Positions 18,812 to 52,744 of a DNA stretch of 64,000 nt are shown in pieces. The DNA is from Hydnum rufescens UP504. Its lineage: Eukaryota; Basidiomycota; Agaricomycetes; Cantharellales; Hydnaceae. The stretch is taken from assembly GCA_014904985.1 (NCBI GenBank), contig MU128990.1, positions 152,423 through 216,422 on the forward strand, in the 5' to 3' direction. The position numbers and the translations under genes are program-made. The notes below the pieces were generated by a model. That model worked only from the letters and a program-made list of their open reading frames with translations, searched no databases and had not been told where the DNA came from. How positions within the stretch are numbered: position 1 is the first letter of the stretch; every line of letters starts with the position of its first letter.

Positions 18812-19631
18812 ATTGACCCCATCTTCTAGTACTGCCATGCCTGCTACTGTTCCCTCATCTGCCTTTCCTACTCCATCTACTACTATGGCAACTTCTGCAG
18901 ATCCAACTGGATGCTTATTCACATCAATCCCAAAGCTTGCTAATGATGGTGGAAATTTTATGCTGTGGAAGTATTGTGTAAGAGAGATTCTTGAAGCATG
19001 TTGCCTACTTGATTACATCACTGGTGACAGTATACAAACTGAACCCAGCACTGGCGATGCAAACCATGGTGACTGGATTACCAGGAACTGTGAAGCACAA
19101 CAGCAGATTACACTTACACTGGAGGATGACCCACTTCTTGGTGTCATGCACCTAGACAATGCTGTGGCTATCTGGGATGCCCTCTGTATGCGCTATGAAG
19201 GGACTGGAGTACAAGCCATCTCATATCTAATGAGCAAAATTTGGTGCAAGCAATTTAATGATACCTCAGACTTGCAAATGCAGATAAATGAACTGTGTGC
19301 AAGTGCCCTTAAGCTCAAAAACCTTGGATTTGACCTCCCTGACAACATTCTTGCCATCGCTATTCTCCTTTCACTACCACCCTCATATGCCAACCTCCAA
19401 ACATCAATTGGAGTAGCAGGTGACAACAAGCTCAGCTCACATAAGGTCACAACCTTAAGTCTTGCTGAACAACAACATTGGCATGAAACTGGCAAGGCAG
19501 CTTTTCAGGCATGTGCCATGAAATCTAACAGTGGAAAGGATGCAAAGGATGGTAAAAAGTACAAGAAGTTGGACATACTGTTGAGAGATGTTACTCAAAA
19601 GGTGGTGGAATGGAGGGACAGGGTCCTCTGA
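18804..19631 (+). CDS. Copia Gag
   Basis: 275 residues. A Ser/Pro/Thr leader is followed by a typical UBN2/Retrotran_gag_2-like fold: LANDGGNFMLWKYCVREIL near residue 35, WDALCMRYEG near 120, an L..IWCKQF helix, then ILLSLPPSYANLQTSI near 195. The C-terminal end is lysine rich. No intact CCHC knuckle is seen; the sequence shifts frame at about 19620 into the protease region. Structural protein of virus-like particles. Confidence 0.8.
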   Translation: MGPLTPSSSTAMPATVPSSAFPTPSTTMATSADPTGCLFTSIPKLANDGGNFMLWKYCVREILEACCLLDYITGDSIQTEPSTGDANHGDWITRNCEAQQQITLTLEDDPLLGVMHLDNAVAIWDALCMRYEGTGVQAISYLMSKIWCKQFNDTSDLQMQINELCASALKLKNLGFDLPDNILAIAILLSLPPSYANLQTSIGVAGDNKLSSHKVTTLSLAEQQHWHETGKAAFQACAMKSNSGKDAKDGKKYKKLDILLRDVTQKVVEWRDRVL

Positions 19632-23353: not shown

Positions 23354-23733
23354 CACCTTGGTCAGTCATCTAAGCCTACCTAGTTAGGTACCACTTTTGG
23401 GGCAGATAATGGTACCTAAGTAGGTCCCATCACTATTCCGGCCGAAATGGCCATTTTACGGCCTGCACCTTCTGGCCCAGAATTGGCCGAAATGGCCGAA
23501 AATTGGCCGAAACTGGGACTTAGAGAATCTCAGACTTGCAGGACAGCAGGCCATATGGACTTATCGGTGATAATAGTGTTCCATTTATAATTATTTATTT
23601 ATTATCACTTATTATACATATATTTGAGGCCTGCCTAGGCGGGCTTTCTGGTTACCCATTTGCATGTTGAGCACTCACCCAATTAGGACTTATTTATTTA
23701 TTTATTTATTTAAAAATTCAATTAGTAAAAAAA

Positions 23734-24038
23734 TACCACACCCGCTTGGGCGGGTGTGGTACCGTCCGTAGAAATAAAATAAAAAACTACTTAGTAGCAC
23801 CACACACCCGCATGGGCAGGTGTGTGGTACCGTCCTTAAAAATAAAATAAAAATAAAAAATAAAAAAACTACTTAGTAGCACACACCCGCTTGAGCGGGT
23901 GTGGTACCATCCGTAGAAACTTAGAAAAAAAACTAAGTAGCACCACACCCGCTCAAGCGGGTGTGGCACTGTCCGTAGAAATTTAAAAAAAAAGAACAAC
24001 CTAGTAGCACCACACACCCGGCCTAGCGGGTGTGTGGT
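23734..24038. repeat. E1 left subterminal cluster of five H hairpins
   Basis: Five ACCACACCCGC/GCGGGTGTGGT-type hairpins lie at 23734-23761, 23799-23829, 23881-23905, 23940-23966 and 24009-24038. They are separated by A-rich spacers of 35-70 bp ending in CTAGTAGC or TTAGTAGC. The matching cluster in E2 lies at its right end (43129-43310), which shows that E2 is inverted relative to E1. Confidence 0.85.
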
Positions 24039-25640
24039 GCCTTCCGCTTCTTCATCGGGGCACGGTGGGCTCGTCGCTGGCCATTTCAAGGGAAGGGGGG
24101 CCGTGGCTTGGCGGTTCACCGTTGGGCCGGTCGTTTGGACTGGTCCCGGGTGTCTGTTGGGGTGGGCACACCTGCGGTAGCGGGTGTGTGGTCTGGCCTG
24201 GTTTCACTCCTCGGTTCGGCGGTTTCGTTCGGCACTCGTTTTGGTGGGTCGCGTTGTTGGTTTCCATGTGGCGGGGGCGTTGTCATTCCCTGGGGGGGGT
24301 TCCTTTGGCGGGTCTTCATTTTGGTGTTTGTGGTAAGGCGGTACCTAGAATAATCAATAATGTGTTAGTAAAAAATTAAAACCAGCGTAAAAAGAGCAGC
24401 ATCTGCTGCTCTTTTTACGCCATTGTGGGTACGAGGTTACTTACCTTGTATAGAACCACACACCCGCCGTAGCGGATGTGTGGTTCATGCGGGTTCCGGC
24501 GTTGTTTCGTGTCTTCGTTCGGCGTGTCGTCGTCGTGGGTTTCGGCGGGTTATCGTTTCGGGGGGGGGCAGTTTCCTTTCACGGGTCTTCATTTAAAGCG
24601 AGAGCCTAGAATGATGCATGTATTAGTTAGAAAATTAAAACTGGCGCAAAAAGAGCAGCATTTCGCTGCTCTTTTTGTGCCATTGGGGGTGTACAGCTTT
24701 ACTTACCTTGTAGTACCACACCCGCTTCGGCGGTGTGGTACTCGTTCATACCGCGGTCGTGTGCCTTCCTCTATCGGGTTTCGTACGGGGCTCAGGTGGG
24801 TTTGGGGGTTGTCGGGCACGGACTCGTTTAACCTAGAAACTATAATAAAAAATGAATAATATGTAGTAAAAAGAAAGAAAAAACCTACGCGAAAGGAGCA
24901 GTGTATTGCTGCTCCTTTGGCGCAATAAAAACTTATCTTAAGATTTACCACACACCCGCCGAAGCGGGTGTGTGGTTTGTCTGGGGGTTCCGTGGTCCTG
25001 TGTCGTGCGTCCTCGTTCTGGTTTGTTTGGCGCTCGTTCTTTTGGCGGGCGCGTTTGTGGCTTTCGTTTTGCGGGGCATTGTCATTTGCGGGGGGGGGTT
25101 CGTTTGGCGGGTCTTCATCTTTTTTTGCTGTATGTACTTTTTCGGCGATAACCTTAGAATAATTAATAACGTGTATTTTTTTTAAAAATTTAACCAAGCG
25201 CAAAAAGAGAAGCAGCATTCGCTGCTCTTTTTTTGCGCCGTAGGGGGAAACTTTTACTTACCTTTATGTAAGAACCAAAACACTGGCTGAAGGGGGTTGT
25301 GTTTTCTGTTTTGGGGCGTTTGATTTGGGTGGAAGTGTCGTTGGGTGGTTTGTCGTTTTGAGGCCGCTCGATCGGCCCGGTCCCATTTTGCTTGGCGGGT
25401 CCTCGTCGTAATTGCGTTTCGGTTTTGTCGGGTTTTTGCGGCGGGATTTCTTTCGGTGGTCATTTGGCGTATGGTTGTCGTTTTAGTTTTGGTCATTTTT
25501 TGGCGGGTTTCGTTCGGTTAAACCTGGACCAAGGCATGACTTGGAATATTAAAAAAAAGTACGTTAAGTATAAAAAAAATTTCACAAGGCAGCCGCAAGG
25601 AGTAGCTTGCGGGCTTACTTCTTTTTGCGGCTAATTGTAT
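24039..25640 (-). repeat. E1 left arm: exon/intron-like hairpin modules
   Basis: Read on the minus strand, each module has an exon-like GC-rich stretch ending in an H hairpin, a GTAAGT-type donor 10-20 nt later, a P hairpin (GCAAAAAGAGCAGC / GCTGCTCTTTTTGC), an ACTAAT-like branch site and a CTAG acceptor. P hairpins lie at 24385-24420, 24642-24680, 24888-24922, 25198-25238 and, degraded, 25590-25632. Open frames on either strand are low-complexity and inconsistent from module to module, so I call no protein. Confidence 0.7.
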
Positions 25641-26560
25641 CTAATTGAAGAAAAATACCCTTATTGACCCACAAAACAAAAACCCGATTTTTCAAGCGGG
25701 TGTGTTGTCGCGTGGGTCATGGTCATGCATGTGCGTTGCTGCTGCTGTTGTGCTTGTGCTTGCTGCGTGCCGTTTTGCTGCTGCTGCTTTTGCTGCTGCT
25801 GTGTTGTGTGTGGCTCTTGGCGCTTGCTGTTTGTGCTTGTTTGGTTGGCTGTGTTTGTCGTGGTGGCGGTTTCGCATTTTGTGCTGGGTGTGGCTGCGTA
25901 GTTTGGCGAAATTTCAAGCCGGCAATTGCAAACAAACTCGGCGAAACCCCAAGTGGGTGGCACTGCAAAGCAACGTTACCCAATAGTAAAAACAAAGGCA
26001 TGTTATTATTTTAAAAAATAAATTACTATAATAAAAATATTTTTGCCCAGGAAACCCCGGAAAGAAAAGCCAATGAATTAAGAAGTTCAGAAGGGCTTTT
26101 CAATTAAGGCAATTGAGGATGGTAATTGCAAGAGTGGATTGGGCCAACTTCTACCACATCGAATGGCCCAAATTTAAAATAGTACATTGGGTATATATTT
26201 AACACCCCCACGTGGGCGATTTGGAATTATTCTCGCGACGATAATTTCGGCATTTTTTTCAATTTTTCACGCTTAAATCTATTAGGGATTTGAAAGGGCG
26301 TGAAATTGGAAATGCGATTAATCGTTCGAGATAAATCCCCAATCCGGCCCCCAACGAGGGGGTTAATATACCCATTACTAATTTTAATTGGCCCAAAATT
26401 TCGGATCTGTTGGTAAGAAAGTGGGCCCAAATTCCACTCTGGCCAATAGCCTTTTTCCATGCTTATTTGGGGTCTGACTCTTTTATTCATTTTGGGCTTC
26501 CTTCGGTTTTCCCTGGGGGCCAGAATTATTTATTATTTATTTAGTATTAATCCCTTAAAT
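25641..26560. repeat. E1 central region with CTG tract and diverged palindrome
   Basis: A CTG-rich tract (25736-25805) precedes an AT-rich palindrome centred near 26283. Its arms are clearly related to the perfect central palindrome of E2 (GGGCCAACTTCTA.., CTCGCGACGATAATT..) but have diverged. The central region is followed by the plus-strand right arm. Confidence 0.6.
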
Positions 26561-27613
26561 ATACATGCTGTTATATTGTGTTTACTGTGGTTTGGCCAGC
26601 ACCAGCGGGCTTGGGGCGCTTTCTTGAGGGTATCGGGGGCAATTGGGCCAGGCATGGAATCTACATCTTGTCCCAGTTCTCCGAACCACCAAAAGGCAAG
26701 GCCGGCCGAAAAGGCAAGCGGATTGAACCCCCACCCGGAAACCCCGCCACTTGCGGGTGTGTGGTCCAACCACAAGTTTGAGTGGTTTTGTCTAGAATAC
26801 CCAACGGCGCAAAAAAAGGGAAGCAGGCAAAAGCTTTGCTTCTTTTGGGCTTCCCTTGGGGGACTCTTATACTACCATTTTTCGTATTATCTAAGATTGA
26901 AGGGGCCCTTTGAGGGTCAAAGGCACGGACGAAAAACCCGCAAAACGAGGACCAGATGGCAGCGCGCCCAAACCAAAAAGGACGGCGCAAAAACGACGCG
27001 ACAACCAAACGGAACGCGGCCACACGAAGACGCCACACGGAAGACGCCAAACACGGAAGACGCACCACACGAGGAATGCGCCACACCGCAACCCATGGGC
27101 AACGCGCCAAAATTGACCCAGAACCACCACACCCCGCTGGCGGGGCGGTTGTGGTACTTTAACCATAAGGTTTGAGTCCCCGGACCCCCCCGTAAATACC
27201 AAAAACCGCGGCCAAAAAGAGCAACGCGGGAAAGGCTGGCTCTTTTTCCGGGGCTGCTTTCCGGAACTTTACTAATGTGCTATTATCTAGCTGGGGCCTT
27301 CGGTTCCAAAAAAACGGGCACCGACGTTACCCACAAAACGACCCCAAAACCCCAAACGGCCACGCGACACGCCCCAACGCGACGGCCAAAACCCGCCGAC
27401 CCCGGCCAATGGGGGGCAAATACTTTGGCCAACTTCTACTATCTCTGTCTAACGCCGACACGCCCAAACGACTGGAACCACACCACAAAAACGACGTGAC
27501 ATGCGCGCCGCGCCAAACGAGGACGCGACCACGCCAAACGAGGATGAAACCGCGCCCAATGCGGGCCCCAGAAATCACACACCCGCCCCGGCGGGTGTGT
27601 GGTCCTATATAAG

Positions 27614-27722
27614 GTGAGTCCCCGTCCCCCCCTGTAGCTACACCCATGCAAAAAGAGCAGCCAAAGCTGCTCTTTTTGCATGGTGTTTAACTCTTAACTA
27701 ATTTAAAACTCTTATCCTTTAG
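27614..27722 (+). other. Intron-like segment with P hairpin (E1)
   Basis: GTGAGT donor, P hairpin at 27646-27682, ACTAAT branch-like site and TTTAG acceptor; 109 nt. The H hairpin at 27576-27601 ends 12 nt before the donor. Confidence 0.6.
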
Positions 27723-27882
27723 GTCTTGACTTCCCTTGCAAACGAATACCGACGCGAGCCCCCCCCTGCAACCCCATTTATCAACGCCCGAACAACGGGG
27801 CACAGAGAGGACCCGTATGTACGACCCAGAGTATACGGCCCCAGTACCCCACACTCCCACAGTGGGTGTGGGGTACTACAAA

Positions 27883-27998
27883 GTATGTTTTCTTTTTTAT
27901 TTTCACTTCTTGTTCTTGTGGCGCAAAAAGAGCAGCATAAGCTGCTCTTTTTGCGCTGCGTTACTGTTCTACTAATGTTTCATCAATTATTTCTTTAG
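27883..27998 (+). other. Intron-like segment with P hairpin (E1)
   Basis: GTATGT donor, perfect P hairpin at 27921-27956, ACTAAT at 27971-27976 and TTTAG acceptor; 116 nt. The H hairpin at 27844-27876 ends 6 nt before the donor. Confidence 0.6.
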
Positions 27999-28460
27999 GT
28001 CCTGAACCAGAACCCCCGCGAACCCCCAAATACGAACCCGCCGAATGAGACGCCGCAAACGATAACCGCGAACGAGCCCCCACAAACGAAAACCGACTCC
28101 CTCGAGGGAGTGCCCAAAGGGAACCGGCCCCCGACTGGGGGTGTATGGGTATGGGCAGATGTGGGTGCATAACCCGCATGAACCATCTGCCCCCTGTGGT
28201 GGCAGACCCCCGGGGGGGGGGTAATATGTATATAGTGTAATATGTATATAATAATAGTAGTAATAATAATAATAAATAGTAAACAAATAATAATAAATAA
28301 GTATATAATCTAGCACAGCCATGGATTGGCCGACAGATGGCCCAAAAACTGAATTGGAATGGCCTGATTTCGGCTGTAAGGTTTGGGGGACCTATTAGGT
28401 ACCATTTTCTGCCCCGAAAGTGGTACCTAAATTAGGTCCCCTATGTGACTGACCAGCCTG

Positions 28461-31400
28461 CAATAGCAGCAGGTCCTTTCATATCTGCACCAGCTGCCAA
28501 AACAAATAAACCAGATCATCATCATAATCCCTTGGGAGATAGAACCAATCAATGTCCTAAGCATCGAATGTATGTTGATGTGCCTCCATGCAGCCCAACA
28601 CAAGACAAACCTTCAGTTAATCAGCCAGACTCATCATCCATGAACCCAGAACCAGTACAGCCAGCCCCAGAGAAATCTCCACAACCAAGTTATCCACCAG
28701 GAATACTGCCCTCCTCAATTCTAAACAAAGCAACAATGGAGAAGCCCACTCATAAGAAAACTAATCCTCCTCAAATTGATCCCCAAGAAGAAATGATAGA
28801 CATTGAGATAGCTCAACCAGAGAAATGAATCCCAAAGAATCCTCCAACATATCATTTCACTACAGACTTTCAAGATGCTTGCAAAGACAAGGAAATAGCA
28901 AAGAAGGTGCTAAATCAAACAGTTGAAATAACTCTTGGAGACTTCCTTGGAACAGCCCATGGACCTGCAAAAATACTTGCAGCTGGACTTAAACTCAAAT
29001 GCGAATATAATCCAAAACATCAAGAGCCACTCACAGTCAATCATGCTACCATAAAACTGCATTTTCCTGCAACAGAAGCCTCTGATTATGACTCTGATGA
29101 TGAGGCAGAACTAGAAGACTACTATGATCTTATGATGATGAAGGATTTGGATGAAGAACCATATCCACAAACACAAACACAAGACCCTCATCAAGTTCAA
29201 GTAAATCTTGTAGGAGTCCTTGGACCAAACCCTTTGTTCACCATGGATACAGGAAAAATTGTGGCTAAAGCAACAGGACAGAATGGAACCAAAGACATCG
29301 TACTCATGATTGACACCGGATCCAAATTAAACCTAATCTCCCAGGAAGTCCAACAAAAGTTAAACATCCCAATGGACTATGATGGACAAAACTGGATGTT
29401 ACAAGGAATCAACAGCAGACCTGAACCTCTAGTTGGATGCTGCTGAAATGTTCCAATTGAAATAGGAGGGATACGATTCAACCACCACTTCTTTGTCAAA
29501 AAGGGAAGCTTTGAAGGCCATGACATACTTCTTGGACAACCCTGGCTAGTAGGAGTTGGTGCTCAAATCAAATATGAAGGAGCTACAAATGGAATCCACA
29601 GAATGGACATTCAAGTCTACAAAAAAGGGAACCCATCAGGATCATCAGTTTCTCTCCATGCCCTTATGAACAAATCTAGGGAACAGGATAAACTTGTTCT
29701 TGCAGCAGCAGTGATACCACCAGATGAATGGCCCCAAGATACAAGCAAACCAAGCCCACCACAGCTGCAATATTGATATAGAACAAATGGAGTATCATTG
29801 ATCCAAACTGCACCCAAACCCCTACCACAAAATTATGAATACTATCACACAGAGGCAACCCCATCTGACCAATCATTACAAGGAAATTCGCCATTTATTC
29901 CAATACTTGGTAGGGAATTGTCAGAGGCCTTATGACTCCCAGAAATGCACACAAAGGACTTCAATCCAAGCACAAACAAGTACCTCATGGATGCCATTAT
30001 AAACAAGGAAAGCATATCAGCATGGTATCTTCACAAAACTTGGAAATTGACCTCTGCAGCATCAGGAAATCAGCTTGAAGACAACCTCATGCGCATTTAT
30101 AATGAAATAAAGCCAAACCTTGTCAATAAATCTCCTGAAAAAGCAGAAAACTTCAGCTATCATATTGGCCAAGTCATCAGGAATGCCAGAAAAATGAAAT
30201 ACAAGACTGTGGATAAGAAGAAAAATCCAATACCCTTAGGAGTCACTTGAAAACCAGTCATTCATCTTCCCTACAAAAATCTTCTGCCAATAACACCTCT
30301 CACACTTCCCACACATCCCCCTAGCTTGAAGGACTTCCAATACACCAAGAAACTCACCCCAGAGGGCATTAAAAAGATAATCAAGAATATCCCTAATGAC
30401 TTCCTTTCAGAAGAAGAACTAGACTTACTGCTCTATGTGGTTGCTCAAAGGGAAAGAGGTCTCACATTCAATGAATCTGAATGAGGAATCTTCAAGACAG
30501 AATATTTCCCAGATTATGTTATGGAAACAGTCCCTCACATTCCATGGGAACTGCCTCCAATTCATCCATCGAAAGCTATTGTTGCAACACTTATCAAAAT
30601 GATTAAAGATCAATTGGCAGCTGGAAAATATGAAACATCATGGTCTTCTTATTGTTCCCAAATGTTCGCTGTAGCAAAACCTAAAGGAGGCATTCAAATA
30701 GTCCATGATTTGCAACCCCTAAACATGGTTTCTGTTAAAGACTCAGGATTACCACCAAACATCAATGATTTCACAGACAGCTTTGTAGGACACTCAGCCT
30801 ATATTGTTGCAGATCTCTATGCAGGATATGATGGATAATGACTAGCAGAAGAATCCCAAGAACTCACAACAAGTGATTCACCACTGGGACCTGTAAAGCT
30901 CACAACATTACCCCAAGGATACACAAACTCTATGCAAGAATTCATGAAAACAGTCACACACATGATTAGACCTATGATCCCAGACAAAGCTGAAGCCTTC
31001 ATGGATGATGTAGCTGGAAAAGGGCCAAAAACGCGGTACAATGACAAACCAATACCTGAAAACCCAAAGATTTGATGTTACATATGGGAATTTGCTCAGG
31101 TTGTTGATGAATTATTTGCCACCTTCATTGAAGCTGGATGTACAGCCTATGGATGCTGTGGTTCAGGTTTAAACCTGTGGAACCTGAGTTTAAACCTGAA
31201 CCTGACCCAGGTCAGGTTCCATTGGGGTCAGGTTTCATTTCATTTTCTTCAGGTCAGGTTCAGGTTTTGCCCTTGCCCTGAATCCAAAAACCAGTCTGAA
31301 ACCAGGTTTAAACCTGAACCTGAAAGGTAGGGTGTAGGTTCCATTCCATGTAAATTCACCACTATCCTGGCACCAAATCTGGCAATTTACACATGTGACT

Positions 31401-34400
31401 ATAGTTCTGGAGTCAGAAGTCACATGACCTGGCCATCAAATGAGGTAATTGGTACAGGTCACAAGTCACATGACAGAATGTAGTGACTAAATACCATCTC
31501 CAGAAGATGTGTGAGCAGTAAATTGAAGTGAAAGGGGGCTAGGAAGGAGATGTGGATCTAAAGCAGGATGTAAAGGGAGTGGCAGAGGCAGAGACTTGAG
31601 CAGGGGGTCTAGATATTCTGTAGTACCCCCTGAAAATGTTGGCTTCCCTCATACCTCAGGTTTCAGGTTTAAACCAGGTTTAAACCTGAACCTGACCTGA
31701 ATGAGACCGAACCTCAGGTCAGGTTCAGGTTTTGCCCTCATGGGTGATTTTGGAACCTGGTCAGGTTTAGGTTTTGCCCAAATTGGGCAAAACCTGACCA
31801 AAACCTGACCGTGGCAACCATAGTACAGCCTCTGGATCAAAACTTGTACTTGCTACACCACTTATACATATTGTGGGAAATGTTTGTTCTATGGAAGGAA
31901 GAAGACCACATCATGGAATCATCACAAAAATAAAAAACTGGCCCTGCCCAACAAATGTGACACAGGCCCATGGATTCCTAGGAACAGTTGGAGTTGCTTG
32001 AAATTGGATTTGGCAATTTGCCAAGATAGCCAAACCTCTCACATTACTCACCAAGAAAACTCCCAATGAATTTGAATGGAATGATCAAGCTGAGGAAGCC
32101 ATGAATCAACTAAAAGAAGCCTCCACAGACCTCCCAGCTCAAAAATCTTTGAACATTGACATAGCCAGAGTATTAAAAGAAGACAAACAAACATCTGATT
32201 ATGGCCTTGTGACACTTGTAGTGGACAGCTCCATCATTGCAGTAGGCTGGATCAAATATCAAACCCTGGAAGATGGACATCATCCCATTGTCTTTGGATC
32301 AGTAACCAACAACAAAGCTGAAACCAAGTATTCCCAGCCATAAATCAAATTAAAGGGGTTGTTTAAAGCACTCAAAGCCCAAAGAAATGACCTCTGGGGA
32401 ATCCATTTCAAAGTGGAAGTGGATGCCAAATTTCTAAAGCAAACTATCAACACACCAGGATTACCAAATGCAGCTATATCACAATGGATTTCATATATTC
32501 AGCTGTTTGATTTTGAATTATCGCATTTTCCAGCAACAAAACACCAAGGTCCAGATGGATTATCCAGGCACCCAGCACATGAAAATGACTCAGTCAACTC
32601 AGAAGATGAACTAGAACCAGATGAACCAGGCCATTTTATTACTGGGCCATGATCTCTTGAAGAATATGAACACTGGATCTTGCACAGTTCCTCAGCATCC
32701 ATGTTATCAACAACAAGAATCAAAAGGGAATCCTATGAAGACATCATTGAATTCAGGCAAAATAACACAGTACTCTCAATCAAGCCACAGGAAAATACAA
32801 CAAGAAATGGTGGATTTGTGGCTCTCTCCTATCAAGCCCACTCATCTGTTCAAAACCATCCCAAAGCACTCTCCCAACATTCACAGTCCCAACACTCAGA
32901 AACTGATTCAGAAATTAAAGAACACACTCTCAAACTCAAGGATTCTGATGGAAAAGACTATTGTGAAAGGATCCAATACTACCTGGAACACATAAAAATA
33001 CCCCCAGGAGTCAAGAACACCAAGACATTCATTCAGGCCACCAAACACTATTTTATGTATCAAGGAACCCTGTGGAGAAGACCTAGAAATGGCCAATTAC
33101 CATTAAAAGTTATCAAGAACCCAGATGATCAAGCTTGCTTATGTAAGGCTGCACATGACAAATCAGGCTACCACAGATGAGACCTGACTTTCAAGAAATT
33201 ATCTGATAGATTCTTCTGGCCAAATATGCTATCCTATGTGGCCTGGTATTGCTGGACATGCCATGAATGCCAATTAAGGTCTACAACCCGACCAAAAATC
33301 ACTTTAAGCCTGACCTATGTTAATACCATATTACATAAATTTAATATGGACATGGTCCATATGCTGGTATCAAATGGATTCAAATATATCATGGATCTTC
33401 AGGACAATCTCTCCAGATGGCTGGAAGCAAAAATGTTACATAAGGCCTTGAGTAAGCATGTTGCCCAGTTTCTATTTGAGGATGTCATGTGCTGGTTTGG
33501 CTGTGTATTACAAATCACAATGGATAACGGAATGGAATTCAATGGACTAGTTCAAACAATGGCAGATGAATATAATGTTCCAATTGTCTGAGCTGCCCCT
33601 TATCACCCAGAAGCAAATGGAATGATAGAATGTGGGCACAGGACCTGGATAAACTCACTATTCATTGCATGCAAAGGGAACCTGAGCAAATGGTCAAACT
33701 ATTTTTATTTGTGCATGTGGGCAGACCAAGTGACAGTAAAATGAACAACTGGCTACACCCCCTATTACCTACTCTATGGAATAAATCACATGTTTCCATT
33801 CAATATCACAGACACATCATGGTACACATTAAAATGGGGAACTATCCAAACCACAGAAGAATTACTAGGAATCTGTGGAATCCAATTGGTGCATGGAGAC
33901 AAAGATATTCAAGCTGCCTCAAATACCATCCTTCAAGCAAGAATTTGAAGTGCTCAGGATTATGCCAGACGAAATGAAAACACATTGGTCGACAGAAACT
34001 ATCAACTGGGTACAATTGTACTGGTATTCAATTCAGTATTACAAATGCAACATGGATGAAAAGGGGAAATACAGTGGATTGGGCCATACCAAGTTCAGCA
34101 TCACCATCCCCATGGATCCTATCAACTGGCAGAATTAGATGGCACCCCAATCAATGGAATATTTGCTGGAAACTGCTTAAAGAAATACCATATGTGCAAC
34201 CAAATAGCCACAATGGACATCACTGGGAATGAGAGCCACAGTGCCATGGACCAAGAATTAAATCAAAATAATATAGCAAAATGTGCAAAAAATATGGACC
34301 AAGCTATGAAATATGGGGGAACAACAATTACAACAAAACAGCACTTCCTGGTATCACTTGGACCAGAAAATCAATTGAGAACCTATCTTTGGCTGCCACT

Positions 34401-34958
34401 GAGAGCTACAGATTCATGGGGCTATTGGGAAAACAAAATTGTGGAGTGGAAATGAAGGAACCTTCTATAAGAACTCCTAGGGAACCCCTTGGAGGAGCCC
34501 CAGATCTCCAAATCCACTTATGAATCCCCTGAAGAGACTCCATAAAAGGAAAATTCAATTCTCAAAAAGGAAATCCCTGAAATATTTTTTTTACAAGCTG
34601 CATCACAAGACCACAACTAAAACTATGGATTCAAGATGACCCTAGAGCATGAGGCAAAGAAAATCCTGAATTAACACCCCTAGAGCCATGGAATGTTGAA
34701 TTGCAGAATGTGCCGAAACTCATGAAAACTCTTTCTGACCATCTTAAAAAACCTGCAGCTGCATCAAAAATCAACATCCCTCCCCTTCTGGTTCCTCTCT
34801 CTATATGGCTATGTAACCCTCTGCACTCCTGACTGATTGCCACAAAGTCTAACTTAACAATATGGCATAATGAATTCTGGCAACCCTTCATCTTTTCATT
34901 CTCATTCCATTTGGTATCTATTGTCCACACACAACAACTCCATCGACCTGTCAACTAA
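28461..34958 (+). pseudogene. Gypsy element U Pol: protease, RT, RNase H, integrase (decayed)
   Basis: One frame, broken mainly by TGA codons, encodes in order: a Pro-rich linker; protease LMIDTGSKLNLIS (near 29310); RT with SSYCSQMFAVAKPKGG (near 30645) and the catalytic FMDDV box (near 31000); RNase H (near 32200-32650, ending LSRHPAHE); integrase with an H2C2-like region (CWTCHECQL, near 33250), DDE segments MDMVHM and TMDNGMEF, and PEANGMIE; then a GPY/F-like module ending near 34190; and a C-terminal tail to 34958. This is the Ty3/Gypsy order. Stops occur at, for example, 28826, 29444, 29935, 30248, 30481, 31072, 32000, 32650, 33178 and 33589. The short element M1 interrupts it at 31148-31822. 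It is not functional. Confidence 0.85.
31148..31822. mobile_element. M1: 675-bp TIR element in U Pol
   Basis: Ends TATGGATGC... and ...GCAACCATA, flanked by the 8-bp duplication GTACAGCC (31140-31147, 31823-31830). The interior is dominated by palindromic CAGGTTTAAACCTG words near both ends. It has no coding capacity and is a hAT-type MITE. Other copies are M2-M5. Confidence 0.85.
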
Positions 34959-35098
34959 ATTATCTCAGCTGGTATCTAAACTACAACAAGGAATGGCCAA
35001 ATAACATCAAACATGAGTATAGTAAGCCCCAATGAGTATAAAAATGGCATGATGACTAACCAACGACACCCAAGCCCGCTTTCCACATCCATTGTACC
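34959..35098. other. Spacer between U Pol and third ORF
   Basis: 140 bp with no feature recognised. Confidence 0.5.
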
Positions 35099-36419
35099 TT
35101 GTCAAAGCCATCCTCTCTCAACATGTCTGACTCCACTCATTTTGATTCAACTGTGACCTCTGTTCAAAGCTATATGTTAAAATACATCCAAATGCCTGCT
35201 CCCTCCCCTACTCCACCCATGCCACTTGTAGAACTCAACCTGGATGGAGACATCTTCCTTTCATCTCAAGTCAAAAAGGAACAAAATGTAACCAACAAGG
35301 TATGGAATGTGGGTCAACCAAAAAAGACATTGCTAATGACAAATCAGACCTTTTGGCCTGATTCTATCTCCTCTTTGCATGCTATTGTCAAGAATTACAA
35401 CATCAATGAATCCTCTACCAATGTGCAGCCACTCTCAGGGCTCAAAACCCAGCAAACCATTGACCCTTGTCTCACATTGTGTCCCCAGACCATTAATCTC
35501 TACCCACATGCTATACTTCCTCCATCCATTCCTCTTCCCACTCAACCCTCAAAAGAACCTGAATTGATTCAGAAGAACATCGTCAGTCACCAGACAACTC
35601 CTACTGTGCAGCAGTTGGATGAATCCTCAGACTCTCCCACAGGGTCTCTCACCTTGAAAAGCACTCATTCTTCATATCATCCTTCCCATCAGTCCTATTC
35701 TCCTTCCCAGCCTCCTTGCACACCCTGCAGCCTTCATAAAATCAGTATACCATGACCTGGCAAAAATGCCAACTCTTACTGCACATGGCCATCCTATTGA
35801 CAAGTGATTATAGATTGCAAGTACAATGCAGTGCAGAAACTTGACAAGATCCAATGCAAGTATGAAGAGAAGCAAAAGGAGGATATAAAGGACAATGCAG
35901 AACTACTTGACCAGTTAAGTCATACCATCTCCAATCACAACCTTCAAATGGATTCTCTCATGCCACCCCTCTCTCTTCTTTCAGCAACCCTACATCAACA
36001 AGAAGCTGACCTCAAGGTGAAAGCCAAAGACCTCAACAGACATGACCTCAAACTCTTACAACATGAGCAGTGTGTAACCAATTGGCATGATTGGTTACTC
36101 TATCCGTCTACATATCACCATGTTACCCAAGTCAACTGTCTCACTAAAATCTTTATCCAAGCCAGGCTGGTCAGTCAAATTGGGGACCTAATTAGGTACC
36201 ATTTTCGGGGCAGAAAATGGTACCTAATAGGTCCCCAGACAGTATGGCCAAAACATGGCCAAAATACAGCCATTCTGATTCATTTCAGCCAATCCATGAC
36301 TGTGCTATATTATATGTTTATTTATTGTTATTATTATCATTATTACTACTATAATTATATACATATTATGCTATATACATATTATCCCCCCCAGGGTCTG
36401 CCACCACAGGGGGGGGATG

Positions 36420-37800
36420 GTTCCTGCAGGTCACACACCTGCATATACCCACCACACCCGAGTGGGGTCCATATGCCCTGGTTGGGGCTGGGTCCATTTG
36501 GGCACTCCCTTGAGGGAGCGGATTTTCATTCATGGGTGCTTGTTCATGGTTTTTGTTTGCGGCATGTCATTCAGCGGGTTTGTGGTTGGGGGTGTACATG
36601 AGTTCTGGTTCAGGATCTAGAGAAATTAAAAATGAAAGATTAGTTAAACAGTAATGCAGCACAAAAAGAGCAGCTTATGCTGCTCCTTTTGTGCCACAAG
36701 AATAAAAAATAAGAAGAAAAAGAAAACTGACCTTGCAGTACCCCACACCTGCTGCAGTAGGTGTCGGGTACCGAGGCCCTGTACTATGGCTCGTACATAC
36801 AGTGGGTTGTATAGGTCCTCCCTGCGGTTTTCATTTGTGGGGGGTTGTTTGTGGGTTTCATTCATGGCATGTCATTCTGTGGGTTTATGGTCAGGGGTTT
36901 GGGCGGGTTCTGGCCAGGATCTAGAGAAATAACAATAGGTTAGTAAAAAATGAATGAATGCAACACAAAAAGAGCAGCATATGCTGCTCTTTTTGCACCA
37001 CGAGAATAAGAAATGAAACAATAAAAAATACCTTGTAGTACCCCACACCCACTGCAGTGGGTGTGGGGTACTGGGACCATACTCCGGCTCATGTATGGCA
37101 GTTTGTGCAGGTCCCCCAGGACCTTGTCGCTTGGGTGTCAATAGGTGGGGTCAGGAGGGGGGGGTTGTGTCAGTATTTGTTGGTGTGAGAAGTAAAGACC
37201 TACAATAGAGAGTTATAAATTAGTTAAGAATTAAGCACCACGCAAAAAGAGCAGCTTTCGCTGCTCTTTTTGTGTGGTTGTAGCTATGGGGGCAGTGACT
37301 CACCTTAAATAGGACCACACACCTGCCATGGCGGGTGTGTGGTTCCTGGGCCCTCATATGGTGTGGTCATGTCCTCGTTTGGCGCATTACCATATGTTGC
37401 ATCCTCATTTGGTGCGTTGCCATGTATCGTGCTGTTTGGCATGTTGCCATGTGTCGCGTCATGGGTGTGGTGCTGTGTGTCACGTTGTTGGCATGGTGCC
37501 ATGTGTTGTGTTGTGGGCATGGTGCCATATGTCGCATCATTGGTGCTGTGCCATATCTCATGTGGTGGGTGCATTGCCATATGTTGCATCATTTGGGGTG
37601 TCTTCATTTGGGGTGTCTTCATTCAGGGCATTGCCATTTGGGCCCTCATTTCATGGGTTTTCATCATGCCTTAGACCCCAGGTCTCAATCTAGAAGAATA
37701 CAAGATATGTTAGTAAAAAGATTCAAAGAGGCACAAAAAGAGCAGCTTCACTGCTCTTTTTGCACCATTGTATCTACAAGCAAAAAAAACCTCACCTTAT
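36420..37800 (-). repeat. E2 left arm modules
   Basis: Minus-strand modules have P hairpins at 36659-36694, 36963-36998, 37239-37277 and 37731-37766. Each is followed (minus strand) by TTAACTAA-type branch-like sites and CTAG acceptors, and preceded by donors such as GTCAGT near 36733. H hairpins include 37031-37072 and 37315-37342. Confidence 0.7.
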
Positions 37801-37889
37801 GACCACACACCCACTGTGGCAGGTGTGTGGTCATACACTTGCCTTTTCAGGTGGTTCATTGTTGTGGTTGTGGAGATGAAAAGAAGATG

Positions 37890-38545
37890 CAAAATTCAAT
37901 GCCGGCAATTGCCGATACTCAAGAAGCGCCCAAGTGCTGGCACCACAAGCACAGTACACAATAGTAGCAAGCATGTAGATATGGAATAGATAATATATAA
38001 TAAATATTTATCCAATAAAATGTGAAGAAGAAGAAAATAATGAGTCAGAGCTCAATAAGGCATGAGATGGCTAATTGCAGAGTGGATTGGGCCACTTCTA
38101 TCCATCAGAATTGGCCCAAATTTAAATATAGTAATGTTATATATACACACTACATGGGTGATTGATTATCTCGGACAATTCTTGCATTTTTCAAATTTTC
38201 ACACCTTCAATTCCTATTTAGGGAATTGAAGGTGTGAAAATTTGAAAAATGTGAGAATTGTCCGAGATAATCAATCACCCATGTAGTGTGTATATATAAC
38301 ATTACTATATTTAAATTTGGGCCAATTCTGATGGATAGAAGTGGCCCAATCCACTCTGCAATTAGCCATCTCATGCCTTATTGAGCTCTGACTCATTATT
38401 TTCTTCTTCTTCACATTTTATTGGATAAATATTTATTATATATTATCTATTCCATATCTACATGCTTGCTACTATTGTGTACTGTGCTTGTGGTGCCAGC
38501 ACTTGGGTGCTTCCTAAGTATTGGCAATTGCCAGTGTTGAATTTC
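37890..38545. repeat. Long central palindrome of E2
   Basis: The arms, about 325 bp each (37890-38214 and 38222-38545), are near-perfect reverse complements around a 7-bp loop. Only the outer 60 bp show scattered mismatches. A CAG-rich tract (38598-38625) flanks it, as the CTG tract does in E1. Confidence 0.9.
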
Positions 38546-39228
38546 ACAACTATGCAGCCACACCCAGCAACAGAAAGGCAGCCACACAACCATGACACAA
38601 CAGCAACAGCAACAGCAGCAGCCCTAGTGCATGACCATGACCACATGACCACACACCCACTGAGGTGGGTGCATGGTCATAAGGTAAGTTTTGTCTCAAT
38701 ACATACAATAGTGCAAAAAGAGTAGCACAAGCTACTCTTTTTGCACTGCTGTGAATTTTTATACTAACATAGCCTTTATTATTCCAGACCAAAACCAAAA
38801 CAAATGACAGGCTGCCCAATGAGTGGCCCGGGCCCCAGTGGAAATATGCAAAACCACGTGAAACGAAACGAAATGAAGCCAAATGAAACCACACCCAACC
38901 CCATCCCAAACCCAACAAAACCACACCACACCCAATGAAACAACACCAAGTGAAAACATGAGAGGTGGCCATGTGAACCACACACCCACTGCAGCAGGTG
39001 TGTGGTTCTATACAATGTAAGTAATCTTGTGCACCCCCAGTGGTGCAAAAAGAGCAGCAAATGCTGCTCTTTTTGTGCTGGTTTTAAATTTTTAACTGAT
39101 AATGTTTTATTCTAGGTATCACCACAAATGAAGACCCATGGAGCGAGCCCCCCCCTGAGATCAAACTCCCACAAAATGAGACCTCTGAGTGACAATGTGC
39201 CAAATGAAGACATGAACCACACACCCAC

Positions 39229-40449
39229 TGTTGGAGGGATAAATCCCTACACCCTAGAAACCCCATCCAAGGCCAATTTTCTAACCAACCAAACAAATGA
39301 ATTGATCATCCATCCGATCCTTAATTTTCACATTGTTCATTCACTGGAGAAACAATCCAAATTCTACACGTCCAAAACCCACCATTCCACATCGTTCCTT
39401 TGCGTTAAGGGTGAAGAATTGTGATTATGTAATGATGTGGACTGTGCCTGGCCTTCGTTCTGGACCCGCGGACCTGTCACATGATTCAAAAAGGGATTAT
39501 GTCACTCTAAAGGAGTATTTTTCGAATTTCTCCGTCATTTTTGATCAGATCTACTCGAAACGACCGCGCCCAGAAAGATACGAGTCGTACCTATTGAACC
39601 GTACCAAACACAAAACGAACGGATCAAAACTGCGGTCCCTGTAACTATATCTTTTCATGATTCATACTCTGAAGGAGTATTTCTTGATTTTCGAAGCCAA
39701 TTCTTATCGTATTCGTTCGCGAGTACCACTCCCGGAAAGCTGTTAAAAATGCACATCGAACGGTACCAAGGGCAAAACGAATTGACGAGAACTCCATTTT
39801 TCACAAGACAACCCCTTCCTCATGACTCCCCCCTTGCTCCACCAACACAAATGACAAATTGGTTCTGGCCCACTTAATTCCAATGCAAAGGACACTCAGG
39901 GCGACCTATTCCACCATTTCTTAAGGGAATCTATCCAGTTTCAAGGCAGGAATGCCTTGTAAAGTGTTTTTTTGTCTCTTTTCACTTGATTCTTGAATAT
40001 CTCCACCAGTTTTGAAGCTTTTAGCTTCATTTCTTTTTCATTATGCTTCCCTTATCTCCGCTTTTCTTCCAAAATTTTGAATTGTGGTCTGGAATGTATA
40101 TAAAGGGGAGGGGGCATGTAAATATTTGGTTTTTCCCCCTATCACAGTCTGAGGCACTGAAGTATTGCCACTGTTTGGAGGAGATTTCCCACTTGTCAAG
40201 ACTGTGTACAGCCGCATTAAGACTGAATAGTCAAGAGGATGACTTTAGGGTGTGGCCTTGACATCTTAATTTTGTGATGCTGATCTATTCCCTTGAGCAA
40301 CCACTGTTCATTGGGATTTTCTATTAACCAGAAAGACCTTCATTTCCCTGGACCTGAATATTTGAATTGTCCCCATGGCTCCCTTCTTTTGTCCTATCCT
40401 CAATGACATGGACAGTAGTTGGATTGGTTTAATAACCATCCTGCTTACA
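39229..40449 (+). mobile_element. S1: solo LTR in an H hairpin of E2
   Basis: Starts TGTTGGAGGGATAAATCCC and ends CCATCCTGCTTACA. It splits an H hairpin of E2: the left half ACACACCCAC and the right half GCGGGTGTGTGG lie on either side. Related copies are S2 and S3. The flanking 5 bp match only partly (CCCAC/CCATG), so the duplication is unclear. Confidence 0.65.
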
Positions 40450-41632
40450 CCATGGTAGCGGGTGTGTGGTTCTATACAAGATAAGTAATTAGTGCACCCC
40501 CCCCCCCTCACCAACACAAAAAGAGCAGCCCTTGCTGCTCTTTTTGTGTTTGTTTTAATTTTTAACTAATAAATTCTCTATTATTCTAGGCTGCCACCTG
40601 AACCACCTGCCAAACAAACCCCCTCTCCACAAAATGACAACGCAACATGCCAAGGAACACCTCAGATGAAACCTGGGACCAAGAACGCACGACAGGGCCA
40701 CAGGGACCCCAGACGAACCACACCCGCTTCAGCAGGTGTGTGATAATTCTAAGGTAAATACAACCATGCAAAAGGAGCAGTGTATGCTGCTCCTTTTGTG
40801 TGGCTCTTCTTTTTTTTCTTTTACTAACATATTTACTATTCTAGATGGTCAAGCAAAATGACAACCTGCCAAACAAACCTGCCCAACACCCCCCTGGGAA
40901 TGATGATGCGACCCACCAAAACAACATGTGCCAAATGAAACATGCCAATGACGACTGGCCAGACCAAACCCAAGAGAGTACCACACACCCACTTCAGCAG
41001 GTGTGTGGTAATTTTAAGGTGAGTACAACTGTGCAAGAGGAGCAGCATACACTGCTCCTTTTGCATGGCTTCTCTTGTTTTTTTTTTTACTAACATATTA
41101 TTTATTATTTTATTTTGTCATCTGGACCCAACACCCACGACCCTGCCAAATGAACACAAGAGAACAACAACCCACCTGCCAAAGGACCCAACACCCATGA
41201 CCCCACCGAATGAACATGAGAGAACAACAACCCACCCACCAAATGAATCCTGCAAACAGCAACAAGTCGAAACCACCATGAAAGCCCCAGACAAACCCCA
41301 CACCCACTTCAGCAGGTGTGTGGTAATTTTAAGGAGAGTACAACTGCACAAGAGGAGCAGCATACGCTGCTCCTTTGTGTGGCTTTCCTTGTTTTTTTTT
41401 TTTTAAATTTTTTACTAACATATTATTTATTATTTATTTTGTCATTTGGACCCAACACCTGTGACCCTGCTGAACAAACACAGGAGAACAACAACCCACC
41501 CACCAAATGAATCCTGCAAACAGCAATGAGTCAAAACCATGACACAAGCCCCAGACGAACCCCACACCTGCTGAAGCAGATGTGGTAATCTTTAAGGTAA
41601 GTATATATATACATGTCCAACTATGCAAAAGG

Positions 41633-42938
41633 TATGGATGCTGCGGTTCAGGTTTAAACCTGTGGAACCTGAGTTTAAACCTGAACCTGACCCAGGTCAG
41701 GTTCCATTGGGGTCAGGTTTCATTTCATTTTCTTCAGGTCAGGTTCAGGTTTTGCCCATGCCCTGAATCCAAAAACCGGTCTGAAACCAGGTTTAAACCT
41801 GAACCTGAAAGGTAGGGTGTAGGTTCCATTCCATGTAAATTCACCACTATTCTGGCACCAAATCTGGCAATTTACATTTCTGGAGTCAGAAGTCACATGA
41901 CTTGGCCATCAAATGAGGTAATTGGTGCAGGTCACAAGTCACATGACAGAATGTAGTGACTAAATACCATCTCCAGAAGGAGATGTGGATCTAAAGCAGG
42001 ATGTAAAGGGAGTGGCAGAGGCAGAGACTTGAGCAGAAGGTCTAGATATTCTGTAGTACCCCCTGAAAATGTTGGCTTCCCTCATACCTCAGGTTGCAGG
42101 TTTAAACCAGGTTTAAACCTGAACCTGACCTGAATGAGACTGAACCTCAGGTCAGGTTCAGGTTTTGCCCTCATGGGTATGGTTGCCACAGTCAGGTTTT
42201 GGTCAGGTTTTGCCCAATTTGGGCAAAACCTAAACCTGACCAGGTTCCAAAATCACCCATGAGGGCAAAACCTGAACCTGACCTGAGGTTCGGTCTCATT
42301 CAGGTGAGGTTCTGGTTTAAACCTGGTTTAAACCTGAAACCTGAGGTATGAGGGAAGCCAACATTTTCAGGGGGTACTACAGAATATCTAGACCCTCTGC
42401 TCAAGTCTCTGCCTCTGCCACTCCCTTTACATCCTGCTTTAGATCCACATCTCCTTCCTAGCCCCCTTTCACTTCAATTTACTGCTCACACATCTTCTGG
42501 AGATGGTATTTAGTCACTACATTCTGTCATGTGACTTGTGACCTGCACCAATTGCCTCATTTGATGGCCAAGTCATGTGACTTCTGACTCCAGAACTATA
42601 GTCACATGTGTAAATTGCCAGATTTGGTGCCAGAATAGTGGTGAATTTACATGGAATGGAACCTACACCCTACCTTTCAGGTTCAGGTTTAAACCTGGTT
42701 TCAGACCGGTTTTTGGATTCAGGGCAAGGGCAAAACCTGAACCTGACCTGAAGAAAATGAAATGAAACCTGACCCCAATGAAACCTGACCTGGGTCAGGT
42801 TCAGGTTTAAACTCAGGTTCCACAGGTTTAAACCTGAACCACAGCATCCATACTCATGGGTGATTTTGGAACCTGGTCAGGTTTAGGTTTTGCCCAAATT
42901 GGGCAAAACCTGACCAAAACCTGACTGTGGCAACCATA
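41633..42938. mobile_element. M2: TIR element in a P hairpin of E2, itself split by M3
   Basis: TATGGATGC...CAACCATA ends, with 8-bp duplication GCAAAAGG (41625-41632, 42939-42946). GCAAAAGG is the 5' arm of a P hairpin, so the hairpin was the target. M3 is inserted at 42178. Confidence 0.9.
42178..42852. mobile_element. M3: TIR element nested in M2, opposite orientation
   Basis: 675 bp, same family as M2 but inverted, flanked by the perfect 8-bp duplication CTCATGGG (42170-42177, 42853-42860). Confidence 0.9.
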
Positions 42939-43128
42939 GCAAAAGGAGCAGCAGGGGCTGCTCCTTTTGCCTGGTTTTTCTTTTTTTAACTAATTTATTA
43001 TTTATTATCATAGGTATTCTTCTGAACCCGCATCCCCCAACTGAAGCCACGACTCTGCTGAGTGAAAACACATGACCATGGGTGAGGGGGAACCCCAATG
43101 GTGAAGCGTGAAATAATGTCCCTGGTAC

Positions 43129-43310
43129 CACACACCTGCCCAAGTGGGTGTGTGGTGCTACTAGATAGTTGTTATTTTAATTTTTTTTGTTCTTTGATTT
43201 CTATGGACAGTATCACACACCCACTAGAGTGGGTGTGTGGTGCTACTAAGTAGTCTTTTTTTTTTTTGATTTCTACAGAGTACCACACACCAGAGTGGGT
43301 GTGTGGTATG
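43129..43310. repeat. E2 right subterminal H-hairpin cluster
   Basis: Three ACCACACACC.../GGTGTGTGGT hairpins with T-rich spacers, the mirror image of the cluster at the left end of E1. Confidence 0.8.
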
Positions 43311-43957
43311 ATAATAAATAAATAAATAATAAGAATGAAACATGGACTCCTGAATGAAACCCCGCTGACCTGGGGTAGCATAAGTATAATATAGTGATAA
43401 TAAATAAATAATTATAAATGGAAGATATTATCCCCAATAAGCCCATATGGCCTGCTGCAAGTCTGAGATTCTCTAAGTCCCAGTTTCGGCCAATTTTCGG
43501 CCATTTTGGCCAATTCTGGGCCAGGAGGTGAAATCATAAAAATGGCCATTTCGGCTGAAATAGTGATGGGACCTACTTAGGTACCATTATCTGCCCTGGA
43601 AGTGGTACCTAACTAGGTAGGCTTAGATGACTGACCAAGGTGATCCAAGCAGCAGATATCATGCGACAGCAGCATCACTTAGACACCCCATATACAGCAT
43701 TCATCCTTCATCATTGTATTGCTCCCACACTTGCCAAGTTATCTGAATCCCTCCGTGCTCCACACGATCTCACCCCTTCCATCTTGACTGATGACTGAGC
43801 TGTCAAATATTATAAGAAATACATGCATGACATTCAGTATGACCTAAAGGACAATGAATGGGCCAAATTTAAGGACACCCTGACTGCATACAAACTAACG
43901 GAACTTCCATCCAACCCAGTGACCAATGAATCAGATGATGACATGAATGGCTGGTAG

Positions 43958-52730: not shown

Positions 52731-52744
52731 TGGGCCAGCCTGAA

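What the first reader, a model, noticed from the sequence alone, without database searches (positions are those of the whole stretch)
23354..43642. Modular foldback transposons E1 and E2 built from repeated hairpin-bearing exon/intron-like units
Seen: two large TIR elements in one host retrotransposon, each with two arms of modules facing outward from a central palindrome. Each module carries an H hairpin (CCACACACCCGC / GCGGGTGTGTGG) and a P hairpin (GCAAAAAGAGCAGC / GCTGCTCTTTTTGC). E1 has 9 and E2 has 11 recognisable P hairpins. The two elements are mirror images in terminus type and in the position of the H-cluster, so they are two copies of one family. Known foldback elements have tandem repeats in their TIRs, but I know of none built of splice-signal modules with a conserved pair of stems. 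No transposase is visible.
Basis: partly seen in the sequence, partly recalled or inferred. Interest (0 to 1): 0.9.

Follow-up and report, generated by a model that had tools for sequence, protein, structure and literature searches.

The report
KDZ transposons with mirrored intron arrays
A mushroom genome carries many copies of a jumping DNA element that seems to code for no protein but contains two outward-facing rows of well-formed introns, each pairing one RNA hairpin at the exon end with another inside the intron, and the same kind of row also follows the stop codon of a gene that tends to lie near a transposase gene.

Summary
E1 (23354-28460) and E2 (36163-43642) are transposon insertions with 7- and 8-bp target duplications; matching empty sites occur dozens of times. 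The source is almost certainly Hydnum rufescens UP504. The modules are genuine intron units: H hairpin, 7-11 nt, GTRAGT, about 28 nt, P hairpin, about 17 nt, ACTAAY, YAG. Exons and spacers have diverged to about chance level while both hairpins stayed conserved. Sense-strand loops favour GNRA (P) and UNCG (H), so the selected product looks like RNA. Exons look non-coding. Arms diverge from a palindromic centre with CCAAT and TATA-like motifs, and 22 of 22 arms carry outward AATAAA near the end. 'Foldback' is only partly right: the arms are not inverted repeats of each other. Two gaps are filled. The likely mover is the KDZ superfamily: 9 of 10 KDZ genes examined have the same kind of terminus downstream. 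The modules have a likely origin: the same array follows the stop codon of a multicopy gene ('gene2') in 15 loci, and gene2 tends to lie divergently from KDZ. I infer a spliced 3'UTR intron array, mirrored in non-autonomous copies, acting in RNA surveillance or expression. No RNA data exist here.

The parts
23347..23353 (.). left target-site duplication of E1, CAATAGC
   Evidence: repeated at 28461-28467
23354..28460 (.). element E1: B-type end left, A-type end right
23354..23368 (+). E1 B-type terminus CACCTTGGTCAGTCA, followed by a subterminal palindrome with GGTACC
23730..24040 (-). E1 H-hairpin cluster beside the B end
24345..24444 (-). E1 left-arm intron with P hairpin (GTAAGT ... ACTAAC ... 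AG), H hairpin just upstream
24606..24706 (-). E1 left-arm intron with P hairpin
25920..26650 (.). E1 centre, degenerate copy of the central palindrome (approximate limits)
27614..27722 (+). E1 right-arm intron with P hairpin
27883..27998 (+). E1 right-arm intron with P hairpin
28446..28460 (-). E1 A-type terminus CAGGCTGGTCAGTCA
28461..28467 (.). right target-site duplication of E1
36155..36162 (.). left target-site duplication of E2, ATCCAAGC
36163..43642 (.). element E2: A-type end left, B-type end right
36617..36731 (-). E2 left-arm intron with P hairpin
37200..37303 (-). E2 left-arm intron with P hairpin
37690..37795 (-). E2 left-arm intron with P hairpin
37900..38520 (.). E2 central palindrome, axis about 38218; candidate divergent promoter (CCAAT motifs, TATATA)
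38684..38787 (+). E2 right-arm intron with P hairpin
39017..39115 (+). E2 right-arm intron with P hairpin
39232..40450 (.). later insertion in an E2 H hairpin (begins TGTTGG, ends TTACA; possibly a solo LTR)
   Evidence: read; not tested
41628..42935 (.). later palindromic insertion in an E2 P hairpin, flanked by GCAAAAGG on both sides
   Evidence: read
43120..43320 (+). E2 H-hairpin cluster beside the B end
43628..43642 (-). E2 B-type terminus CACCTTGGTCAGTCA
43643..43650 (.). right target-site duplication of E2

Best explanation
Shown by sequence: E1 and E2 are DNA transposon insertions with the ends of KDZ (Kyakuja-Dileera-Zisupton) elements and no transposase of their own. Each carries two outward-facing rows of hairpin-bearing, spliceosomal-type introns with non-coding, T-poor exons, on either side of a palindromic centre. 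The same array directly follows the stop codon of a multicopy gene ('gene2'): read in one locus, and aligned over its first 381 bases in 15. gene2 copies that have a listed KDZ gene within 20 kb are more often divergent from it than expected. Inferred: the centre is a divergent promoter; both arms are transcribed outward, spliced and polyadenylated near the ends; KDZ transposase moves the elements in trans; E1 and E2 arose when a gene2 3'UTR array and its end were mirrored around a promoter and the coding parts were lost. Most likely function (inferred, about 0.35): the introns make the element's transcripts look like well-spliced host mRNA, raising accumulation and avoiding nuclear silencing of unspliced or badly spliced transposon RNA. 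The P hairpin folds out the intron middle so that donor and branch point lie close. The H hairpin covers the place where an exon junction complex would land, and so could spare an mRNA with introns behind its stop codon from nonsense-mediated decay.
For: KDZ link: of 10 KDZ genes (taken from the 20 best-scoring matches) whose downstream DNA I fetched, 9 have an inward-facing end with at most 2 mismatches to CASSYTGGTCAGYCA about 1.6-1.9 kb from the domain (0.25 such matches expected in the 28 kb by mononucleotide shuffle). Target duplications are 7-8 bp with CA..TG termini, as reported for KDZ (PMC12730594, passages). Introns: a search by splice signals alone finds 56 in 64 kb of elements and 0 in 130 kb of other DNA in hand; 49 of 56 hold a perfect 11-bp stem of any sequence between donor and branch point. 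86 of 89 recognised introns face outward from their element's own axis. Constraint: same-arm module pairs match near chance in exon bodies (0.59 vs 0.59 shuffled) and spacer 1 (0.43 vs 0.42), but H zone 0.74 vs 0.53 and P arms 0.90-0.92 vs 0.62-0.64. Between related modules of different copies, non-CpG divergence is 0.105 in exon bodies, 0.111 in intron spacers, 0.063 in the H zone, 0.015 in P stems. RNA level: sense P tetraloops GNRA 39 of 107, antisense 1; H loops UNCG 20 of 88, antisense 3. Folding z-scores -5.2 to -10.1 in 5 of 5 modules. Centre and ends: CCAAT and TATATA-like motifs in most of 18 half-centres; AATAAA outward 80 in 22 of 22 arms, inward 26 in 14 of 22. Origin: the stretch across the stop codon into the first P intron aligns over its whole length in 15 loci, the read one included, at 93-100% (40 of 946 candidates scored); gene2 places with a KDZ gene within 20 kb: 16 divergent, 10 tandem, 3 convergent. 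The H loop spans about -19 to -27; the exon junction complex is deposited 20-24 nt upstream (title in the reference list of PMC6173133).
Against: No RNA, protein or excision data. 6 of 11 module elements lack a target duplication. One of 10 KDZ genes had no such end, and I could not read a KDZ element from end to end; a candidate 17-kb pair (A end C2:731526, B end C2:748678) has no matching target duplication. In some searches the modules had been chosen by P arm, donor, branch point and acceptor patterns, so those sites are biased towards identity; H was not used. G-U over A-C excess in P stems is weak (40 vs 24, p=0.06) and partly explained by CpG decay; in H it is nil (42 vs 38). With the loosest grouping of modules GNRA is the majority in 0 of 3 groups. 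6 of 21 spliced arms have a longest ORF above the 95th percentile of shuffles, so a short peptide is not excluded. Of the 15 array-bearing gene2 loci only 4 have a listed KDZ gene within 20 kb (3 divergent: C189, C103, C384; 1 tandem: C9), the KDZ list being capped. The surveillance function is a proposal by position and analogy.
Confidence: 0.55

Rival explanations
1. Passive relics: an exon-intron unit with hairpins was captured once and multiplied like a minisatellite in the arms. The hairpins persist through DNA-level palindrome correction or gene conversion and do nothing.
For: Arms vary in module number (7-18 P hairpins in 11 elements); other elements with the same ends are plain foldbacks with repeated arms and none or few intron-like signals.
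Against: Splice signals and stem sequence survive while exons and spacers have lost detectable similarity (with the selection bias noted). Loops are RNA-type and strand-specific, which DNA correction does not predict. The array is held at 93-100% behind a stop codon in 15 loci, though recent spread alone could also give this.
Confidence: 0.25
2. The introns are carriers: each releases a P hairpin (and each exon an H hairpin) as a small structured RNA, like a snoRNA host gene with one small RNA per intron and non-coding exons.
For: One conserved hairpin per intron at a nearly fixed distance from the branch point; exons that look non-coding; favoured tetraloops.
Against: P is only 32 nt; no Rfam family reached its gathering score in 23000-44000.
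Confidence: 0.15
3. H and P palindromes are DNA sites bound by transposase or a host protein in the element ends.
For: Palindromic arrays, found with the element ends in 55 of 64 hairpins checked and in the gene2 locus read.
Against: Position is fixed to splice signals rather than to the ends; loop preference is strand-specific; of 20 KDZ loci L009-L028 only L014 holds an exact P arm, and there a module element adjoins.
Confidence: 0.07

Closest known systems
KDZ (Kyakuja-Dileera-Zisupton) DNA transposons
   Same: same kind of terminus as 9 of 10 KDZ genes examined; CA..TG ends; 7-8 bp target duplications
   Different: no transposase; mirrored intron arrays, not mentioned in the passages seen of PMC12730594
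Foldback elements (FB, Galileo, Tetris)
   Same: non-autonomous, palindromic centre, modular arms of variable length
   Different: arms are not inverted repeats of each other; modules are hairpin-bearing introns (FB and Galileo are recalled; Tetris seen only in a search listing)
Introns as self marks against transposon silencing: HUSH in human cells; SCANR in Cryptococcus
   Same: introns or good splicing protect transcripts (PMC8770142 abstract; PMC5851062 passages; PMC3744415 abstract)
   Different: those are host defences; here a transposon would carry the introns itself; not tested
Nonsense-mediated decay through 3'UTR introns in fungi
   Same: junctions behind a stop codon are an NMD signal, and the EJC acts in Neurospora NMD (PMC6173133 passages)
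   Different: here a hairpin sits at each predicted junction where the EJC would bind; effect untested
snoRNA host genes
   Same: non-coding exons, one structured element per intron (recalled)
   Different: hairpin much shorter, no Rfam match at gathering score

Membership tests
KDZ DNA transposon (non-autonomous member) | termini shared with KDZ-transposase-encoding elements | tested here: met
   9 of 10 KDZ genes have an inward-facing end about 1.6-1.9 kb from the domain
KDZ DNA transposon (non-autonomous member) | CA..TG ends and 7-8 bp target duplication | tested here: met
   E1 7 bp, E2 8 bp; 5 of 11 module elements have one, 6 have none; KDZ values from PMC12730594 passages
KDZ DNA transposon (non-autonomous member) | encodes a KDZ transposase | tested here: not met
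   no ORF of 260 aa or more lies within E1 or E2 (one of 266 aa from the left flank ends 439 bp inside E2); no C82 place among the KDZ matches listed, of which only 150 of 584 candidates were scored. Hence 'non-autonomous'
KDZ DNA transposon (non-autonomous member) | moved by KDZ transposase | not testable with these tools
   needs an excision or transposition assay
Foldback element | long inverted repeats that fold the element back on itself | tested here: not met
   self-BLAST of E1 and E2 shows inverted matches of about 50-70 bp at the ends and short module matches; no long arm-to-arm repeat apart from the centre. L029, L033 and L041 with the same kind of ends do meet it
Spliceosomal intron | donor, branch point, acceptor at intron spacing | tested here: met
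   56 by signals alone against 0 in 130 kb control; lengths 88-133 nt in 89
Spliceosomal intron | spliced in vivo | not testable with these tools
   no RNA data
Introner element | intron inserted in coding sequence of host genes | tested here: inconclusive
   only two P clusters far from exact TIRs were read: an element (L066) and an array behind the stop codon of gene2 (L065); none inside coding sequence
Protein-coding exon array | frame kept across exons | tested here: not met
   30 exons: lengths mod 3 are 6/14/10 (0/1/2), no common open frame; 15 of 21 spliced arms have longest ORFs within the shuffled 95% range, 6 above it

The most novel reading that the evidence does not exclude
A DNA transposon superfamily has evolved a dedicated RNA device against RNA surveillance: a row of introns placed behind the stop codon of its own gene, each with an intron hairpin that brings donor and branch point together and an exon hairpin set over the exon-junction-complex site. 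The transcript would then be read as well-spliced host mRNA without triggering decay. Parasitic copies have mirrored this device around a divergent promoter and spread as many protein-free elements.
Probability: 0.25. Interest if true: 0.9.

Novelty: new variant of a known kind. Interest (0 to 1): 0.72.

Why it matters
Introns protect transcripts from transposon silencing in human cells and in Cryptococcus, but I know of no transposon described as carrying a row of purpose-built introns. If the array is spliced and functional, it gives a natural and mutable system to test how intron structure, exon junction complexes and 3'UTR introns set the fate of transposon RNA. It also gives KDZ elements, of which only Zisupton was well characterised as a transposon according to PMC12730594 (passage), a defined non-autonomous family and a candidate second gene. 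None of the titles and abstract starts listed describes such arrays; those lists are short or capped, and the one paper naming Hydnum rufescens with transposable elements (PMC7550596) was not read.

Tried and rejected
Rejected: strict foldback; coding exons (a short peptide stays possible); known RNA families (20 matches listed, none at its gathering score; the miRNA matches are palindrome look-alikes); random hairpins. Introners are not excluded genome-wide (one search read two clusters only). G-U against A-C asymmetry in P stems was inconclusive, in H nil (42 vs 38). A peptide from a spliced arm found one weak Hydnum protein (38% over 51%, E 0.0075), so that search shows no annotated protein that clearly corresponds. 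The exact P hairpin gave 0 hits in viral contigs and 2 in prokaryote genomes, taken as chance. Grouping module hairpins by single linkage put 104 of 107 in one group and was uninformative. Pfam found nothing at E 1 in four gene2 pieces.

Rows dropped: 45 of 162 P hairpins with ambiguous intron direction left out of the loop counts. 25 of 89 introns left out of the module comparisons: 20 because the donor chosen lay in the H stem, 5 by a crude position filter that also removed two outward introns of E2 and one of L036. L039 and L043 left out of the centre alignment. In one search, 26 of 150 gene2 rows left out, 21 of them further fragments of a gene already counted and five separate weak places (two of which, C221 and C4, would have added divergent pairs); 150 KDZ rows used, the listed ones. 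First-draft figures mended on checking: outward introns (81 by a rough midpoint, 86 by own axis) and ORFs above the shuffled range (6 of 21).
Full report
OBSERVATION. The window lies in a 63.2-Mb genome of 539 contigs. The closest KDZ proteins found for it belong to Hydnum rufescens UP504, and their contig lengths (132100, 332720, 155211, 665372, 539377) equal those of contigs C178, C42, C151, C3 and C6 here, so the organism is almost certainly that mushroom (Cantharellales). E1 and E2 have the stated ends and 7- and 8-bp target duplications. The joined-flank query of E1 matches 40 scored places, 34 over the whole query; that of E2 matches 39, two of them its own flanks, 34 nearly whole; best identities 99% and 97%. 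This shows clean insertion into one retrotransposon family. The terminus CASSYTGGTCAGYCA occurs 1,295 times (reversed control 3), in elements of more than one kind; the P arm occurs 4,143 times (control 0). The number of module elements was not counted; several hundred is my guess from these figures.

ANATOMY. I fetched 20 stretches and took 11 complete module elements for analysis (E1, E2, L031, L034, L035, L036, L038, L039, L040, L042, L043). Ends come in two types, A (CAGGCTGG) and B (CACCTTGG): 9 of 11 elements have exactly A at one end and B at the other, L040 has a variant of A with B, and L043 has B at both. Hairpin P lies in an intron: donor usually about 28-34 nt before it, ACTAAY about 16-20 nt after it, acceptor about 25 nt further on; intron length 88-133 nt in 89 cases. 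H ends 7-11 nt before the donor in 95 of 100 cases found. Splice signals alone pick out 56 introns in 64 kb of element and none in 130 kb of control, and 49 of the 56 have a perfect 11-bp stem of any sequence between donor and branch point, 20 a perfect 10-bp stem just upstream of the donor. 86 of 89 introns face outward from their own axis.

CONSTRAINT AND RNA. Modules of one arm (84 pairs) are near chance in exon and spacer sequence but share both hairpins. Related modules in different copies (87 pairs) differ at 10.5% of non-CpG exon sites and 1.5% of P stem sites. P arms, donor, branch point and acceptor helped choose the modules, H did not; the P threshold allowed 4 of 14 mismatches, so bias should be modest there but strong at the splice sites. 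Some stem changes are paired: position 7 is A-T in 89 and G-C in 26 of 117, mixed in 2. With direction taken from the splice signals, P loops are GNRA in 39 of 107 and antisense GNRA in 1; H loops are UNCG in 20 of 88 and antisense in 3. GNRA and UNCG are the two classic stable RNA tetraloops (established knowledge). Grouped by flank similarity, GNRA is the majority loop in 11 of 27, 4 of 14 and 3 of 8 groups at three thresholds, and in 0 of 3 at the loosest. Five of five modules fold better than all 200 shuffles; P forms in all five, H in four.

NOT CODING. Thirty exons have lengths 6/14/10 in the three residue classes and no shared open frame. Longest ORFs of 21 spliced arms lie within the shuffled 95% range in 15 and above it in 6. 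Exons are T-poor (7-19%).

CENTRE AND ENDS. A palindrome of about 250-300 bp per side is nearly perfect in 5 of 9 elements aligned (E2, L031, L034, L035, L040), interrupted in 3 and decayed in E1; L039 and L043 have other or shortened centres and were left out. Aligned outward from the axis, most of 18 half-centres share GGCCAATT and GGCCCAATCC, then an A+T-rich TATATA-like stretch; most are then followed by a first exon ending in H and a donor. AATAAA near the ends: outward 80, in 22 of 22 arms; inward 26, in 14 of 22. These are the parts of a divergent promoter and of poly(A) signals; function is inferred.

KDZ. Pfam PF18758 has at least 154 matches here (150 of 584 candidates scored; control genomes 0 of 14). 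I fetched DNA downstream of 10 KDZ genes out of the 20 best: 9 have an end of this kind facing inward. KDZ elements in the literature make 7-8-bp duplications and, for two Kyakuja families, have CA..TG ends without TIRs (PMC12730594, passages only). So KDZ transposase is the likely mover.

ORIGIN OF THE MODULES. One P cluster far from any exact TIR (C2, about 7.6 kb) turned out to be three intron modules directly behind the stop codon of a gene (L067 and L065; no Pfam match in four pieces), closing with a B-type end of 2 mismatches. The gene has 150 scored matches in the genome, fragments included. The stretch from its last codons across the stop codon into the first P intron aligns over its full length in 15 loci, itself included, at 93-100%; I could not read the letters of the other 14. 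gene2 places within 20 kb of a listed KDZ gene number 29 of 124 used (11.8 expected at random): 16 divergent, 10 tandem, 3 convergent (p about 5e-4 against one quarter). In the 10-18.1 kb range, chosen after seeing the list, 15 of 20 are divergent. The simplest model is a parent of perhaps 17 kb with KDZ reading to the A end and gene2, with its intron array as 3'UTR, reading to the B end; E1 and E2 keep the array, mirrored, and drop the coding parts. Of the 15 array-bearing loci, 4 have a listed KDZ gene within 20 kb, 3 of them divergent.

FUNCTION. Introns raise mRNA accumulation cumulatively in Cryptococcus (PMC3744415 abstract). Badly spliced transposon transcripts feed SCANR RNAi there (PMC5851062 passages). 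In human cells introns counteract HUSH silencing (PMC8770142 abstract). Junctions 50 nt or more behind a stop codon can trigger decay through the exon junction complex, which acts in Neurospora NMD too (PMC6173133 passages). The first gene2 junction is about 163 nt behind the stop (L065 524 and 687). With a gap of 6-11 nt, the H loop spans about -19 to -27, the complex's landing site. I therefore propose intron mimicry plus junction shielding; this is inference, with no experiment behind it.

CpG. E1 has CpG observed/expected 0.97 and E2 0.25 inside a host retrotransposon of 0.07; eight other copies have 0.78-1.09 and L043 0.13. E1 may thus be younger, or less methylated, than its host element.

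Noticed in passing
window 49288-51399 (and 52718-52732): A third element with A and B ends and 30-bp tandem repeats in foldback arms (inverted match 89.6%), without hairpin introns; it lies inside another palindromic repeat.
   Followed up: partly
window 41628-42935, also about 49230-49287 and 51400-52316: A palindromic repeat with TATGG..CCATA ends and CAGGTTTAAACCTG motifs; in E2 it is flanked by GCAAAAGG on both sides, an 8-bp duplication.
   Followed up: no
L029, L033, L041, L044: Plain foldback elements with the same kind of ends but different arm repeats (main inverted matches 93-99.7%); L029 contains copia-like retrotransposon frames. KDZ-type ends seem to serve several unrelated foldback families.
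   Followed up: partly
L065 and L067 (C2:5000-8800): Multicopy Pfam-less gene with 150 scored matches, often divergent from KDZ: candidate second gene of KDZ elements.
   Followed up: partly
window 4110-5675 and 54586-56437: Two 138-bp tandem arrays; the second encodes a tetratricopeptide repeat protein (788-aa frame).
   Followed up: no
window 18798-19631: Gag of copia type (PF14223) upstream of the host retrotransposon region; host DNA between E1 and E2 has CpG observed/expected 0.07.
   Followed up: no
L045 and L062: Candidate 17.1-kb KDZ element on C2 (731526-748678) with A and B ends but no matching target duplication.
   Followed up: partly
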